Positions 7,941 to 38,326 of a stretch of 64,000 bases of DNA are shown in pieces. The stretch is from Anagrus nilaparvatae. Lineage: Eukaryota; Arthropoda; Insecta; Hymenoptera; Mymaridae. The stretch lies in assembly GCA_022575985.1 (NCBI GenBank), contig JAKSXM010000231.1, positions 3,660,501-3,724,500 of the forward strand, in the 5' to 3' direction. A program made the position numbers and the translations under genes. How positions within the stretch are numbered: the first letter of the stretch is position 1; the number at the start of each line of letters is the position of its first letter. The notes below the pieces were generated by a model, which saw nothing but the letters and a program-made list of their open reading frames with translations, did not search any database and was not told where the DNA came from.

Positions 7941-8699
7941 TCAAGGGCGTAAAAGTTTCGGCACTAGCGTGAGCACTAGCACGAGTGCTCGGCAAAGCCG
8001 TGTCTAAAGTATTTCGCCCATGCACAGTGATCTAGGAAAAAAAAAAGAAGACAAAAATTCGATTTGCTCGAGGTTATGTGCTATTTTGACGCGGCTTACG
8101 TCATTTTATAGCTAAACTCCTCTATTTTACGAAAAGCACGACAAGAAAGTTTTTTTAATACATTTTCCACCCCTAAATTGCAAAAAACTACCCCCAAAGT
8201 ATGAAATTTATTATAAAATAATATTTTTGCGCAAAAAAATATCGAAGTAAGTTTATCAGTTTTAAATTCTAAGAGTGGCATTAAGGGTTTTTAGGGGTTC
8301 AAAAGGGTTAAGATATATAAAAAAAATTGTTTTAATACATTTTATAAATATTTAATAAAATTTTATTTTGAACAACTATGGAAATCCTCACTTTCAGGTG
8401 TATTTAAGGGTTGTTAGGGGGTTTTTAAGGGTATTTTTTTTTGGTTCCTCAAAGAGGAACCATTGTGTTAGGTCAAAATTTGATTTTCTATTTTTTGGCA
8501 TATAAGCACGTATGGCATAAAACGGCATAAAAGCACGTTTTGGGACCCCAGGAAGCTAAAAAACCTGTTTTTAAAAAAAGTCTGTATGTGTGTGTGTGTG
8601 TGCACGTATGTATGTAATCGGTGATATTTCACAAATATTATGGAATTAAGACCTAATTTTTTTAAAAAATTTTTTCACCAAAAAAGCTCGAGGTACTTT

Positions 8700-10330
8700 T
8701 TTTTTTTTTGATTTGGATGTAATACCTCATTTATTTCCACGAAAGTACCTATATTTGAAAGTATGGTTTTTACATGATATCTCGAATCGGATACTTAATT
8801 TTCTGAAAATTTTTTTTCTAAAATTTTTTTCACAAAAAAATACAAAAAATACTAATTTTTTTTTTCTTTTTGGACGTAGTACCTAATTTATTTCCATAAA
8901 AGTACCAGTTTTAAGAACCTTGTTTATTGTTATTTTTTGGATCTGATACTTAATTTTTTCAAAATTTTTTTTGTCAAAATGAAAAAAATAGAAAAATAAA
9001 AAAAATGCAATATTTTTTTTTTTTTTGGGTGTAATACCTCATTTAATTCTATGAAAGTACTAATATCTGAAAATATTGTAACTAGTGATATTTCAAAACT
9101 ATTATCGAATTAAGACCTAATTTTTTTTTCAAACATTTTTTTATCAAAAAATCTAAAACCCCCCTTTTTTTTTTAATTTGGATGTAATACCTCATTTATT
9201 TCCATGAAAGTACTTATATTTGAAAGTATAGTTTTCAAATGATATCTCGAATCAGATACTTAATTTTCTAAAAATTTTTTTTCTAAAATTTTTTTCACAA
9301 AAAAAATAGCAAAAATACCAGTTTTTTTTTCTTTTTGGACTTAGTACCTAATTTATTTTCATGGAAGTACTAGTTTTAAGAACCTTGTTTATTGTAATTT
9401 TTTGGATCTGATACTTAATTTTTTCAAAATTTTTTTTGTCAAAATTAAAAAAAAAGAAAAATAAAAAAACTGTATTATATTTTTTTTTTTGGTGCAATAC
9501 CTCATTTAATTCTATGAAAGTACTAATATCTGAAAATATTGTAACTAGTGATATTTCAAAACCATTATCGAATTAAGACCTAATTTTTTTTCCAAACATT
9601 TTTTTATCAAAAAATCTCAAACCCCCCCCTTTTTTTTTTATTTTGGATGTAATACCTCATTTATTTCCATGAAAGTACTTATACTTGAAAGTATGGTTTT
9701 TACTTGATATCTCCAATCTGATACTTAATTTTTTGAAAATTTTTTTCACAAAAAAATACAAAAAATACGAAACTTTTTTTTCTTTTTGGACGTAGTACCT
9801 AATTTATTTCCAAGGAAGTACTAGTTTTAAGAACCTCGTTTACAGTAATTTTTTGGAATTGATACTTAATTTTTTCAAAATTTTTATTCTCTAAATTAAA
9901 AAAAAAGAAAAATAAAAAAAATTGCAATATTTTTTTGGTGTAATACCTCTTTTAATTGTATGAAAGTACTAATATTTTAAAATATTGTAACCAGTGATAT
10001 TCCAAAACAATTATCGAACGAATACCTAACTTTTTTTTCCAAAAATTTTTTATTAAAAAAATCTCAAAATACTTTTTTTTTTTTTAATTTGGATGTAATA
10101 CCTGATTCATTTCCATGAAAGTACTTATACTTGAAAGTATGGTTTTTACTCGATATCTTGAATCTGATAATTAATTTTTTGAAAATTTTTTTCTTCAAAA
10201 TCTTCGTTACAAAAAAATACATAAAACATCAAATTTATTTTTCGTATTGGACATATCTAATTTATTTTAATGAGAGAACAAATTTTATAAATTTAGTTTA
10301 TAGTAATTTTTTGTATCCGATCACAATTTT
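8700..10330 (+). repeat. Higher-order tandem repeat: three about 155 bp monomers in a 460 bp unit
   Basis: Three related monomers recur in fixed order. Type A has GATGTAATACCTCATTTATT, type B has GGACGTAGTACCTAATTTAT, and type C has GGTGTAATACCTCATTTAAT. Type A begins near 8713, 9180, 9643 and 10,090, a period of 447-467 bp. All share the frame TACCT(C/A)ATTTA.TTC.ATG(A/G)AAGTAC. The same monomers occur once or twice in the other family B copies, so the array has expanded in this copy. Confidence 0.8.
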
Positions 10331-10884
10331 TTTTTTATTTTGATATAAATTATAACACACAAGAAAGAATATAATAATAATAATTTTTGACTTCCTCGGA
10401 TTATTTTGTTCGTTGCTATGTTTATTTATGTATGCAGCTTAATGAAATTATAAACAATAATAAACAGCCTAAAAATATTAAATGGTTATGTTTGCATTTT
10501 AAAATTAAGATGCAAACCATTTTAAAATTAAGTTGCCAACTATTTCTTTGACAAAACAAAAAAATCATGTTACTCAATATTTTAATTATTAAGGGATAAA
10601 ATTTTTTGAAATAATAACAGCCTTTACGAGCAAATTTTATTAAGGGATAATTATATATTCTAATAAAATTTTACAAAAAAATAATAAAATTAGCTTTTTT
10701 TATATTTATCTCTTTTTAATTATGCAAAAATGATTTAAAATCCATTATAACGCCGGCGCGATCAATCCATGGACGCTAGAATTTTTACTTTAATAACTAA
10801 ATGATCTTACTGGTCTACTTTACCTAGTAAAAAAGAAAAATGTATGTATAATTGCATGGTTGTAATCAATAATATTTATTGCAT

Positions 10885-12283
10885 TAATTTTGATGAAGTT
10901 TATTAAAAATAAACAACGATCTATATGGAACAAATAAACATGATAACTTTTTTCATTATCTTTGTCTGTGTGTCTGAGGACTGAGCCTCTCTTTGTCACA
11001 CAGAATATTTTTTTTTTTGAAGAAAGTTATATGATGTTAATTTTTAGATGGAAAAAAATTTTTGTTTTATTAAAAAATGAAAAATCTGAAAGTTCATTTC
11101 AGCTCTGCAAGAAAACAGGGCGAGCTTCATCAGTGTGAGACCCTGTTTTCTGCTTTTCACATATGAACAAACAGAAAACTTAATAATTTACAAAAAAAAC
11201 ACAAAAATGTAAAAAAATTTTTTTAAAAGAAAGAAAGAACTTACATTTTTTGACACACCAGGAAGAGAATTTCAAGTAGAATGAGCAATAGAAAGAAAGA
11301 ATTCTCTCCTTCTACGCACACACACACTTAAAGCTCCCACATCTGCGTTCAAATTATGTCGTCAAACTACGAAATATTTAAAACTAAGTAATAAACTGTA
11401 AAGAATATAAAAAATATATATAAAAAAATTTTTTATTCAAATAGAATTTTTTCATTTTTTAAAAAAATATATATATATGTCTAGATGGTAGACAACAATT
11501 ATTATTTTTGTAGGCATTTTTTCGATCAATTGCCAATTAATATTCACAAAAAAACAGTATAAATACTGTTTTACGTTCCAAATTAATTAAATTAATTTTG
11601 ATGAAGTTTATTAAAAATAAACAACGAACCATCTAGACATATATATATATATTTTTAAAAAATGAAAAAATTCTATTTGAATAAAAAATTTTTTTATATA
11701 TATTTTTTATATTCTTTACAGTTTATTACTTAGTTTTAAATATTTCGTAGTTTGACGACATAATTTGAACGCAGATGTGGGAGCTTTAAGTGTGTGTGTG
11801 CGTAGAAGGAGAGAATTCTTTCTTTCTATTGCTCATTCTACTTGAAATTCTCTTCCTGGTGTGTCAAAAAATGTAAGTTCTTTCTTTCTTTTAAAAAAAT
11901 TTTTTTACATTTTTGTGTTTTTTTTGTAAATTATTAAGTTTTCTGTTTGTTCATATGTGAAAAGCAGAAAACAGGGTCTCACACTGATGAAGCTCGCCCT
12001 GTTTTCTTGCAGAGCTGAAATGAACTTTCAGATTTTTCATTTTTTAATAAAACAAAAATTTTTTTCCATCTAAAAATTAACATCATATAACTTTCTTCAA
12101 AAAAAAAAATATTCTGTGTGACAAAGAGAGGCTCAGTCCTCAGACACACAGACAAAGATAATGAAAAAAGTTATCATGTTTATTTGTTCCATATAGATCG
12201 TTGTTTATTTTTAATAAACTTCATCAAAATTAATTTAATTAATTTGGAACGTAAAACAGTATTTATACTGTTTTTTTGTGAAT
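10885..12283. repeat. Large palindrome: two 605 bp arms, 138 bp spacer
   Basis: The left arm 10,885-11,489 and right arm 11,628-12,232 are reverse complements that I found to match essentially base for base. The unit is bounded by the direct repeat ATAATATTTATTGCAT (10,869-10,884 and 12,284-12,299), the mark of an insertion into family B. The spacer's right part (about 11,548-11,627, ACAGTATAAATACTGTTTTA onward) is repeated inverted at 12,197-12,283, so the right half is itself a TIR unit. Each arm has an inner small hairpin (GAAAACAGGG / CCCTGTTTTC). No protein is encoded. Confidence 0.85.
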
Positions 12284-12656
12284 ATAATATTTATTGCATA
12301 TTGAAGTTTAAAGACCATTGTTTGAGGAACCTCAGTGCCAGCTAGTTGGCAGGGTATTTTTTTTTTTTAATAAATACGTTAATTGTTTGCAAAGTTTTCA
12401 TTTTGTAACATAATAAACCTACTTCGATATTTTTTTGCGCAAAAATATTATTTTATATTAAATTTCATACTTTAGGGGTAGTTTTTTGCATTTTAGTGGT
12501 GAAAATGTATTGAAAAAACTTTCTCGACGTATTTTTCGTAAAATAGAGGACTTTAGCTTTAAAATGCCGTAACCCGCGTCAAAATAGAACGTAATCTCGA
12601 TCAAATCGAATTTTTTTCTTCTTTTTTTTTTCCTAGATCATTGTGCCATGGTGCTT

Positions 12657-18825: not shown

Positions 18826-19004
18826 TTATAAGTTTTTTACTATATCGACATTTTTATTGTTATTATTTGAATAGACTTTTCAAAAAATGATTATACTGTC
18901 TATAATTTTGGCTACCTTTCAAGCACAATAAAAAGTAAAATAATTATTATTCATTATTTTCTTCTTTTTTTTTATTGTTTGGGAAATAATACTTATATTT
19001 AATA

Positions 19005-19205
19005 TTAAGTATCAAGGGCGTAAAAGTTTCGGCACTAGCGTGAGCACTAGCAGGAGTGCTCGGCGAAGCCGGGCACGAGTGATATGTATTCACGCTCGTG
19101 TCTAAAGTATTCCGCCCATGGTGCTTACACTATTTTTTGCCCACCTAGGTGTAGAACGAGTTCAGAAAATTCTTTACACACGAGTTTTACGCCCGGGAGC
19201 AAAAA
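19005..19205 (+). mobile_element. Family C small TIR element, uninterrupted copy
   Basis: Ends AAGGGCGTAAAAGTTTCGG and CACGAGTTTTACGCCC define a roughly 180-200 bp unit. It matches both halves of the split copy at 7930-13,640 and serves as the empty-site reference for the insertions there. No coding capacity. Confidence 0.75.
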
Positions 19206-21118: not shown

Positions 21119-21908
21119 GGTTCCTCAAAGAGGAACCATTGTGATAGGTCAAATTTCGATTTTTGATTTTTTGGCATATAAGCATGTTTTGAGACCCAAG
21201 GAAGCTAAAAAACCGGTTTTTAAAAAAAGTATGTATGTGTGTGTGTGCGTGTGTGTATGTAATTGGTGATATTTCACAAACATTATGGAGTTAAGACCTA
21301 ATTTTTTTTTCAAAAATTTTTTTATCAAAAAAGCTCGAGGTACTTTTTTTTTTTTTAATTTGGATGTAATACCTCATTTATTTCCACGAAAGTACTTATA
21401 TTTGAAAGTATGGTTTTTACTCTATATCTCGAATCTGATACTTAATTTTTTGAAAATTTTTTTCCCAAAATTTTTTTCACGAAAAAATACAAAAAACACC
21501 AAATTTTTTTTCTTTTTGGACGTAGTACCTAATTTATTTCTATGAGGGTACTAGTTTTAGACAGTTCATTTATAGTAATTTTTTGAATCTGATACCGAAT
21601 TTTTCCAAAATTTAAAAAAAAATAAAAAAAATAAAAAAAATGCAATATTTTTTTTGTTGGTGTAATACTTCATTTAATTCCATGAAAGTACTATCTTGAA
21701 TAATTATTATCCAATAAATTACCTTAAATTTTATTTTGAAAAAAATAGATAGATTTAGTTGAATTCAATAAATAAATTTTCTTTTAACTTTTAAAAGTTA
21801 ATAGAAATGAATGTATGATTGCATGGTTTTATTCGGTGATATCTGTGTCATATTGAAGTATTTAGCTCATTGTTTGAGGAACCTTAGTGCCAGATAGTTG
21901 GCAGGGTA
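21119..21908 (+). mobile_element. Family B element copy 2, short form
   Basis: It begins GGTTCCTCAAAGAGGAACC, then a GT-rich run and single copies of monomers A, B and C, and ends TTGAGGAACCTTAGTGCCA ... TTGGCAGGG. At about 790 bp it gives the unexpanded form of family B and shows that the 8.7-10.3 kb array and the palindrome are additions. Confidence 0.7.
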
Positions 21909-35456: not shown

Positions 35457-37054
35457 GATTCAGGTTCTACAAGGGAACATGAATCGAATCGAGCCAGGGA
35501 AGCTGGTGCGTTGTTGGAACAGATCGCCCGAGAAGAAGATTCAGACATCCTCTTACTAAGCGAGCAATCCTTCAACATGAACCACAAGTACTGGCTTTCC
35601 GATGACACTAGCTACTGCGCCATATGGCTCCGAGGAAGAGCCCAAACGTCCCTGACTCAAAAAGGGAAAGGAAATTTCCACGTTTGGGCCAAGTGCGGGG
35701 AGACAACTTACATAAGTTTGCTATCTCTCCCCAAACGACAACTCGGCAGAGCTGGCTACAAAGCTGGCCAGCATCGAGAGCACGGTCCGAACGGCGAGTG
35801 GTGGCGTCATCCTTGGTGGAGACTTCAACGCCAGGGCTCTGGAATGGAGGATGCCGACGACTAACCCCAGGGGACGAATGGTGCTCGAAATGGCCAATAG
35901 GTGCAAACTAGTGGTCCAGAATAGAGGCAATAGACCCACCTACGATAGGCCGGGTTGGGGTGTCTCTATCCCGGACATAACCTTCGCTACAGAAGCTGCG
36001 TCCGGGAGAATAGGCGACTGGAGGGTGATGGATGATCAATACAATGGTAGTGATCATCATTACATCGCCTTCCGGGTGTTGGAAGGAACCTCACAACGAC
36101 CTCCGTACAGGAGGCGCCCCCTGGGTTGGAACGTCCCAAAAATGGACGAAGACAGATTCGAAGAGTATCTTCGAACCGAGTCAGCGTCCATCCCCGCTTG
36201 GCATGGAGGGGCCACTAGTCCCCATCAGGCTGAAATCTTAGTTAAGAAAGTAACGTCTCAATTATGCGGGGCTTGTGATGCCTCGATGCCTTGCTGCAGG
36301 CCCTGGAAAGGGCGAAAGCCAGTGTACTGGTGGACTCCCGAAATAGCTGAGCTCCGGAAGGAATGCCATAGGACGCGACGAAGGGCGCAAAGAGCACGGG
36401 ACAGACCTGAGGCTGCTTTGCTTTCTCAGGAACATAAGGACGCCAAACACCGGCTGGCCAAGGCCATCCGTCAAAGCAAGGCTCCATTTCTGCGTTCATT
36501 ACGCGAAGATGTAAACAAGGACCCCTGGGGCCTAGGTTACAAAGTTGTAATGGGCAAGTTAAACCGGGGGTCCGACAACATGATGTACGCGGTGTCGACT
36601 GAACGGATCGTCGGTGCTCTCTTCCCTGAAAGGCCCATCCGGGAAAACCCGGTTGAGGTGATACCCAGGGAAGAAGTGCCGCTGTTCAGCGAAGGCGAGA
36701 TGGTTAAGGCCATAAAGGCCATGAAAAATAGCAAGGCGCCGGGGCCGGACGGGATACCAGCGGAAGTGCTCAAAAGAGCGGTCAAAGTAATCCCTGGTAT
36801 CCTGTTAAGCATGTTCAATGCGTGTTTGGTGGCTGGAGTGTTCCCAAAACAGTGGAAGGTGGCACGTCTCTTGCTCTTGAACAAGCGCAAGGGGGGAGCC
36901 CCGGACTCTCCATCATCTTACAGACCTTTGTGTATGTTAAATACCATTGGTAAGGTGATGGAGAGCATGCTCCGGGCAAGGCTCAGAAGGGCAATCGAGG
37001 AGGGCGGTAACGCTGGACGTCAAAAACGCTTTCAACTCGGCCAGGTAGGATGAC
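35457..37054 (+). pseudogene. ORF2 N-terminal half: APE endonuclease and RT fingers
   Basis: The endonuclease restarts at 35,457 (MIQVLQGNMN). A 5 bp repeat (AATCG) shifts the frame near 35,485, and another shift lies near 35,720. Later endonuclease motifs are readable from 35,815: GDFNA, IPDITFAT and SDHHYI. RT begins about 36,690 with AIKAMKNSKAPGPDGIPAE and SYRPLCMLNTIGKVMES. At 37,010 (EEGG) roughly 130 bp are missing compared with the family, which removes the GFR-type segment, and the frame changes. Confidence 0.85.
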
Positions 37055-38326
37055 ATGATCCGGTCTCTCAAGTACGATTTCCAGATACCCAGCTATCTGG
37101 GTAACGTACTAAAGGATTACCTGCGGGACCGGAGACTGCTCTACGACACGCTCGATGGAAGGCGTGAAAGGTTTTTGAGTGCAGGCATCGCACAAGGTTC
37201 GGTTCTCGGACCGGACCTGTGGAATGCCTTTTTCGATGGCTTGTTACGCGTCCATCTCTCGGAAGGAGTTTCCCTGATCGGGTACGCTGACGACGTGGCC
37301 CTGACCATAACTGGCAGGGACATGGAAGTGACCCAGGAGAGGTTGAATCTAGTCATGAGACGGATCAACCTCTGGATGGGTGATCATGGGCTCCAGCTTG
37401 CGATCTTAAAAACGGAGATCGTACTGCTGACCCGTCGAAGGGTTCCTACCGACTTCGATGTAATTATTGACGACGGCGGAAACCCTCACACGATCCGAAC
37501 CAGAACATCGGTGAAATACCTGGGAGCAATAATTGATAACAAGCTGACCTTCTGGGAGCAATTTCAGAGGTCGTGTGAAAAGGCAGCGTCGGTCGCATCC
37601 TCCCTGTCAAGGCTCTTGGCCAACATTGGGGGACCCAAACCAGGGAAGCGAAGGCTCCTGATGTCAGTCGTCAACTCTGTCCTGCTCTACGGATCAGAAG
37701 TCTGGGCGAAGACCACAGAAATTGCCAAGTACAGACATAAAACATCGTCTATACAGAGGCAAGCGGCAGTGAGGATCGCCTGCGGATACCACACGGTATC
37801 TCTAGAGGCGATCCAGGTTGTCGCTTCGGTGATACCCATTGCCTTGCTAGCGTTGGAGCGGAAATTCATCTACGAGATCGTAGATGAGCGCGAAGTGGCT
37901 TTCACTCGCACCCGCTTCAACTCTATGAAAGCATGGAAGAAACGATGGAAAAAGAACCAAGAGAAAAATGCCCGATGGACGTGCAGACTGATCTCAGACC
38001 TGCAGGAATGGATAGGACGACAGCATGGGGAGGTGGATTTCTACCTTACCCAGTTCTTAACTGGACACGGGTATTTCCGTGTCATGTTGAAGCGTTGGCA
38101 TAAGGTGGCAACAAAGGAGTGCTTGCACTGTCCGGGCGTGGATGATACAGTAAAGCACACATTCTTCGAATGTGTGCGCTACGCGGAGGGGCGCCCGTCC
38201 TTTCCGATTTGGAGGCCGGAGACGGTGGTCCCGGAAATGCAACGGAGTTCCAAAAACTGGAACAAAGTAGCAGAGTACGTAAGGAATACCTTGTTGGAGA
38301 AGAAGGAAGAGGGCTTTCTATCGTAG
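37005..38326 (+). pseudogene. ORF2 C-terminal half: RT palm, thumb and CCHC
   Basis: The frame resumes with VTLDVKNAFNSAR (catalytic Asp present), a TAG in place of the usual Trp, then DDMIRSLKYDFQIPSYLG. LIGYADDVALT carries the catalytic YADD (about 37,280). After the thumb, the C-terminal C-x2-C...H....C motif reads CLHCPGVDDTVKHTFFEC (about 38,120-38,175), as in R1 and relatives. The frame is open for 423 codons to the stop at 38,326. The palm is intact but the protein is separated from its fingers by the upstream deletion. Confidence 0.9.

What the first reader, a model, noticed from the sequence alone, without database searches (positions are those of the whole stretch)
8018..12650. Transib-type element ending in a perfect V(D)J-like heptamer
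The left terminus is CACAGTG, the RSS heptamer; the right terminus is CACAATG. A 220 bp TIR, a 5 bp duplication CCATG and an empty site (19.1 kb) fix the ends. Transib transposases are the accepted relatives of RAG1, and their ends normally read CACWATG, so a CACAGTG end is a natural intermediate form. The 4.6 kb passenger interior is also large for a non-autonomous Transib copy.
Basis: partly seen in the sequence, partly recalled or inferred. Interest (0 to 1): 0.75.

Follow-up and report, generated by a model that had tools for sequence, protein, structure and literature searches.

The report
Nested Transib-type MITE carrying a Helentron-like insert
The stretch is an ordinary small, gene-less jumping element of the Transib kind, whose ends look like the DNA signals used in antibody-gene recombination, and it looks large only because a second jumping element landed inside it.

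Summary
The observed ends are real: element 8023-12645, ends CACAGTG/CACAATG, ~234-bp inverted repeats (91%), 5-bp duplication CCATG. It belongs to a repeat family in its own 489-Mb genome. In fetched copies 14 of 19 end pairs carry an identical 5-bp duplication (12 of 16; 2 of 3); none of the 16 match at 3, 4 or 6-9 bp. The flanking 5-mers fit C(G/A)N(C/T)G in AT-rich surroundings, agreeing with the CGNCG target printed for Transib. Membership is very likely, although no transposase was found: the one answered protein search was uninformative. The 4.6-kb 'passenger interior' is a ~3.9-kb Helentron/HINE-like element (8443-12356) inserted in the oligo-T tract of a ~705-bp MITE. CACAGTG does not look like an intermediate from CACWATG: it is the commonest end sampled, and CACAATG marks one end of one subfamily. 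An A-rich block lies mostly 19-22 bp from the heptamer, without 12/23 asymmetry. New member of a known kind, low to moderate interest.

The parts
8018..8022 (.). left target-site duplication CCATG
   Evidence: 5-bp duplications in sister copies
8023..8256 (+). left terminal inverted repeat, ~234 bp, beginning CACAGTG ATCTAGG and an A-rich tract
   Evidence: (234 aligned columns, 91.0%), alignment
8257..8433 (+). left internal part of the ~705-bp MITE
   Evidence: aligned to 8 complete copies without the insert
8443..12356 (+). nested Helentron/HINE-like element in the oligo-T tract: 19-nt palindrome at 5' end, inverted GAGGAACC and a 16-nt palindrome near 3' end, no duplication seen
   Evidence: two related copies in the window at 21119-21908 (+) and about 15000-14026 (-)
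8700..10375 (+). inside the nested element: four ~460-bp direct repeats built of ~155-bp units
   Evidence: families D1, D3
10874..12243 (.). inside the nested element: 616-bp inverted repeat, arms 10874-11489 and 11628-12243, 99% complementary
   Evidence: I1
12357..12412 (+). right internal part of the MITE, beginning in the oligo-T tract
12413..12645 (-). right terminal inverted repeat, reading CACAATG ATCTAGG inward
12646..12650 (.). right target-site duplication CCATG
19002..19126 (+). paralogous copy of the target without the element (left side matches, only 6 bp on the right)

Best explanation
A non-autonomous, ~705-bp Transib-superfamily MITE inserted at a CCATG target by cut and paste, using a Transib transposase supplied in trans. 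Inferred chemistry, from the family and not tested here: the transposase binds the inverted repeats, nicks 5' of the CAC heptamer, forms flank hairpins, excises the element and joins it to a GC-rich target with a 5-bp stagger. Later a ~3.9-kb rolling-circle element of the Helentron/HINE kind inserted into the MITE's oligo-T tract without duplicating target bases, making the 4.6-kb composite. Shown: ends, 5-bp duplications, target preference, family copies without the insert, nested boundaries. Inferred: the enzymes and the order of chemical steps.
For: Identical 5-bp duplications in 12 of 16 end pairs and in 0 of 16 at 3, 4, 6, 7, 8 or 9 bp; 2 of 3 further pairs. Flanking 5-mers are 71% GC against 31% in the adjoining 100 bp, with C in 34 of 43 at -5, G or A in 36 of 43 at -4, C or T in 39 of 43 at -2 and G in 41 of 43 at -1 (both ends of a copy counted, so not all independent). 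The printed Transib target is CGNCG (PMC4735498, passage). 37 of 43 ends start with CAC. Eight complete copies without the insert align end to end with the two outer parts of the window copy, which is broken at one oligo-T tract. The nested ends are shared by three repeats in the window.
Against: No transposase was found. PF12940 gave 0 matches in the own genome, with 13 of 13 candidates scored, but the 14 control genomes were silent too, so this is not informative. None of the six-frame ORFs listed in L029-L039 (at least 110 aa) or L040-L045 (at least 100 aa) was recognised by eye as such a transposase. 5 of 19 pairs lack an identical duplication: L022 differs at one base; L024, L027, L038 and L045 may be decayed, truncated or wrongly paired. 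One further pair without an identical duplication, L034, was dropped as a near-copy of L027; counting it gives 14 of 20. The window copy's CCATG is a looser fit to CGNCG.
Confidence: 0.92

Rival explanations
1. A MITE of another CAC-ended superfamily (Chapaev or CACTA/CMC-like) whose ends resemble Transib.
For: Such superfamilies also start with CAC (recalled); no transposase was found here.
Against: Their duplications are 2-4 bp (recalled); here 12 of 16 pairs match at exactly 5 bp and none at 3 or 4, and the target fits CGNCG.
Confidence: 0.04
2. A RAG-like (RAG1L-RAG2L) element rather than Transib.
For: 5-bp duplications and CAC heptamers are shared by both (PMC7204232 passages; PMC8289069 passages).
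Against: The protostome RAGL end consensus printed in PMC7204232 (CACTWMCAAAC...) is not matched by CACAGTGATCTAGG. RAG2-like genes were not searched for.
Confidence: 0.03
3. The 4.6-kb element is one genuine passenger-carrying transposon that moves as a unit.
For: Both ends and the duplication are intact in the window, so a composite could in principle move.
Against: The other 18 end pairs are 604-3335 bp long, too short to hold this interior. The interior has its own ends and occurs twice more in the window without the Transib ends.
Confidence: 0.02

Closest known systems
Transib superfamily non-autonomous elements (insect Transib MITEs)
   Same: CAC heptamer, inverted repeats, 5-bp GC-rich duplication fitting CGNCG, no gene recognised, under ~800 bp without the insert; Transib MITEs in insects are already catalogued (PMC5199201 passages)
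   Different: mean length given there is ~482 bp; here ~705 bp with ~234-bp inverted repeats; commonest heptamer CACAGTG; transposase not found
Hztransib of Helicoverpa zea
   Same: long inverted repeats and a 5-bp duplication GCTCG (PMC1852546 passages)
   Different: 3518 bp with a deduced 489-aa protein; its end sequence was not seen in any call
Helentron-derived HINE / DINE-1 elements (for the nested insert)
   Same: palindromic subterminal repeat at the 5' end, inverted partner and palindrome near the 3' end, T-rich target, no duplication, internal tandem repeats in some copies (PMC4067079 passages)
   Different: has a 616-bp inner inverted repeat; 3' subterminal repeat ~25 bp from the end (38-60 bp in the mite families described) and 3' palindrome ~5 bp from the T tract (8-35 bp there); no autonomous partner with these ends was found
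V(D)J recombination signals
   Same: heptamer CACAGTG identical to the consensus (PMC8289069 passage) and an A-rich block further in
   Different: A-rich block at 19-22 bp on both sides, no 12/23 asymmetry, no ACAAAAACC nonamer

Membership tests
Transib superfamily | 5-bp target-site duplication | tested here: met
   12 of 16 pairs and 2 of 3 identical at 5 bp; 0 of 16 at 3, 4, 6, 7, 8 and 9 bp
Transib superfamily | CGNCG-like GC-rich target | tested here: met
   column counts over 43 ends; published motif in PMC4735498. The window copy itself has CCATG, a looser fit
Transib superfamily | termini beginning with a CAC heptamer | tested here: met
   37 of 43 ends start CAC: CACAGTG 21, CACAATG 11, 5 others; 6 do not (after removing 6 of the 49 ends). 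Of 9 further ends, 4 are CACAGTG and 5 changed or truncated. Sample drawn with a CACAGTG-bearing query
Transib superfamily | RAG1-core-like DDE transposase in an autonomous partner | tested here: inconclusive
   PF12940 in own genome: 0 matches, 14 control genomes silent; the looser search did not complete. A passage in PMC4411706 says autonomous Transibs are typically present in one or a few copies
Helentron/HINE (nested insert) | palindromic 5' subterminal repeat and 3' palindrome | tested here: met
   9-bp stem at 8442-8462, z -4.3, 0 of 200 shuffles; the 3' stem of 6 bp is weaker, z -1.8, 10 of 200 shuffles
Helentron/HINE (nested insert) | insertion in T-rich target without duplication | tested here: met
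   comparison with 8 copies lacking the insert; a duplication of Ts only could not be told apart in the T tract
Helentron/HINE (nested insert) | autonomous Rep/helicase-endonuclease partner with the same ends | tested here: inconclusive
   L035 holds a Helitron_like_N + PIF1 ORF that runs off the fetched stretch; the nested-element ends were not found in L035
V(D)J-type 12/23 signal | heptamer-nonamer with 12 and 23 bp spacers on opposite ends | tested here: not met
   38 of 42 scored ends have the A-rich block at 19-22 bp, 4 at 8, 18, 23 and 33 bp, and 1 of 43 was not scored; left and right ends of the window copy are both 21

The most novel reading that the evidence does not exclude
An animal (probably insect) Transib lineage whose commonest terminal heptamer is exactly the vertebrate signal consensus CACAGTG, within which one subfamily has a fixed one-base difference between its two ends (CACAGTG / CACAATG) and an A-rich block at 19-22 bp. 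If an active transposase exists in this genome, the two ends may be bound unequally, giving a natural system for testing end asymmetry.
Probability: 0.2. Interest if true: 0.4.

Novelty: new member of a known kind. Interest (0 to 1): 0.22.

Why it matters
It adds a well-delimited Transib MITE family with CACAGTG ends and removes a false lead: the large 'passenger' is a nested Helentron-like element. If its transposase is found, its ends could be tested directly against vertebrate recombination signals.

Tried and rejected
Considered and rejected: a 4.6-kb passenger-carrying Transib; CACAGTG as an intermediate from CACWATG; 12/23-type spacing. The nonamer-like block was located by one motif inside the repeat, so its near-constant spacing mainly reflects conservation of the repeat; no independent significance test was made.

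Led nowhere: the autonomous partner. I fetched 11 stretches of about 6.5 kb behind ends with no near partner (three of them longer versions of stretches) and 6 stretches found only with the outer 78 bp. No transposase was recognised by eye in their ORFs; of those ORFs only two, both in L035, were scanned against Pfam. L044 proved to be a 3335-bp member with 5-bp duplication CGCTG, much of it one long inverted repeat; no open frame of 100 aa was listed in that locus, and the longest in its inner 2.5 kb was 84 aa.

Limits: one search scored 40 of 344 candidates and one search scored 40 of 136, so copies are a sample biased towards the query. The stretches, with the window, cover the 40 hits. Six ends (L017, L021, L023, L026 and two of L034) were dropped as repeated or near-copy loci before the count of 43; the pair in L034 (no identical duplication) was dropped with them. 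The subfamily of ten was chosen by me from length, identity and pairing of end types, so its end asymmetry is a description, not an independent test. The blast list was cut in print and is not used for counts. The host was not identified.

Papers: passages only were seen of PMC8355894, PMC7204232, PMC4067079, PMC8289069, PMC1852546, PMC5199201, PMC4735498 and PMC4411706. Other papers appeared in search listings only and are not used. PMC1131882 (Kapitonov and Jurka 2005) is not held; what I know of it is recalled. No claim of absence from print is made.

Full report
The window is a 64-kb stretch of an unnamed 488.7-Mb genome (G000, contig C95:3660501-3724500), 31% GC. It is probably an insect's (inference from its LINE, BTB and zinc-finger sequences, and from its repeat types); the host was not identified.

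Observation. The element runs from 8023 to 12645. Its left end reads CACAGTGATCTAGG followed by an A-rich tract, and the right end, read inward, CACAATGATCTAGG followed by the same tract. The inverted repeats align over 234 columns at 91.0% and lose similarity further in. CCATG stands directly outside both ends. The claimed empty site at 19.1 kb is real on the left (70 bp at 97% and 24 bp at 96%, with about 25 bp between them present only in the paralogue), has CCATG once, and matches for only 6 bp on the right. It supports the 5-bp duplication but would be thin evidence alone.

Family. A search of the own genome with the left repeat scored 40 of 344 candidates, all 40 matching. Regions around the hits were fetched, and six further ones found with the outer 78 bp. 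Convergent end pairs were taken as copies. Of 16 pairs, 12 have identical 5-mers outside both ends and none is identical at 3, 4, 6, 7, 8 or 9 bp. Of three further pairs, two have identical 5-mers. One more pair (L034, not identical) was dropped as a near-copy of L027; with it the total would be 14 of 20 instead of 14 of 19. The 5-mers next to the ends are 71% GC against 31% in the adjoining 100 bp, and read mostly C-(G/A)-N-(C/T)-G. A paper on moth elements in baculoviruses names CGNCG as the preferred site of Transib (PMC4735498, one passage). A GC-biased 5-bp duplication is stated for ProtoRAG, with the same base preference for Transib and vertebrate RAG, in PMC8289069 (passage).

Heptamers. 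Among 43 ends, CACAGTG occurs 21 times, CACAATG 11 times, and 11 ends have other forms one base away from one of these (six ends of repeated or near-copy loci were dropped from the 49). Of nine further ends, four are CACAGTG and five are changed or truncated. In the ten copies of the window copy's subfamily (L009-L016, L019 and the window), the right-type end is CACAATG in 10 of 10 and the left-type end is CACAGTG in 9 of 10, the tenth being TACAGTG. Outside this subfamily, CACAGTG accounts for 12 of 23 ends and CACAATG for 1 (counted). So CACAATG looks like a subfamily mark of one end, not the form from which CACAGTG is a step, with the caution that the sample was drawn with a CACAGTG-bearing query. 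An A-rich block (AAAAAAATT in 32 of 42 scored ends) lies 19-22 bp inside the heptamer in 38 of 42. A figure legend in PMC8355894 describes nonamer-like blocks at symmetric 20-22 bp spacers in known Transib ends, so this too is ordinary. There is no 12/23 asymmetry.

The interior. Of the 16 paired copies, ten are 686-714 bp long, three (L022, L027, L038) 604-649 bp, L025 870 bp, L011 1151 bp, and the window copy 4623 bp. Eight complete copies align from end to end with the two outer parts of the window copy, which is interrupted at a single oligo-T tract. The interrupting stretch, about 8443-12356, begins with the palindrome GGTTCCTCAAAGAGGAACC and ends with GAGGAACC, the palindrome TGCCAGCTAGTTGGCA and GGGTA before the T tract. 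Like ends bound two other repeats in the window, at 21119-21908 and about 15000-14026 on the other strand, without Transib ends. The 5' palindrome folds better than all of 200 shuffles; the 3' one is weaker (10 of 200 shuffles as good). Palindromic subterminal repeats, a 3' palindrome, T-rich targets without duplication and, in some copies, tandem repeats are the printed features of Helentron-derived HINE elements (PMC4067079, passages); the distances of the 3' features from the end are somewhat shorter here than in the mite families described. The insert holds four ~460-bp repeats made of ~155-bp units and a 616-bp inverted repeat with 99% complementary arms. A Helitron_like_N + PIF1 open frame near a family copy in L035 shows that rolling-circle element genes exist in this genome, but it was not linked to these ends.

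Transposase. None was found. The Pfam RAG1 model gave no match in the genome, but its control genomes were silent too, so the answer says nothing. A later, looser search did not complete. A passage in PMC4411706 says that autonomous Transibs are typically present in only one or a few copies, so a miss is not surprising. Filing under Transib rests on ends, duplication length and target, all met; the gene remains untested.

Verdict. A Transib-type MITE, moved in trans by an enzyme not seen here, later broken by a Helentron-like insertion. The exact CACAGTG heptamer is real and, in the sampled family, common, but identity of some Transib ends with canonical signals is already noted in PMC8355894 (passages), and insect Transib MITEs are already catalogued (PMC5199201, passages). 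New member of a known kind.

Noticed in passing
L044:3683-7017 (G000 C1): A 3335-bp member of the same family with 5-bp duplication CGCTG, much of it one long inverted repeat, without a long open frame.
   Followed up: partly
L041:6046-7238: A 1193-bp member with about 500-bp inverted repeats and duplication CGACT.
   Followed up: partly
window 10874-12243: 616-bp inverted repeat with 99% complementary arms and a 138-bp loop inside the nested element; origin unknown.
   Followed up: no
L035:2-2896 (-): 965-aa open frame, cut by the end of the stretch, with Helitron_like_N and PIF1 helicase domains, near a family copy.
   Followed up: partly
window 35716-38323: LINE remnant with endonuclease and reverse transcriptase domains in separate frames.
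   Followed up: no
window 19016-19196: The repeat that served as target looks like a small element with GGGCGTAAAA...TTTTACGCCC ends (read by eye; limits approximate).
   Followed up: no
L017 and L018 (C175:6421230-6422748 and 6398941-6400459): Two mirror-image copies about 23 kb apart with the same flank, suggesting an inverted duplication.
   Followed up: no
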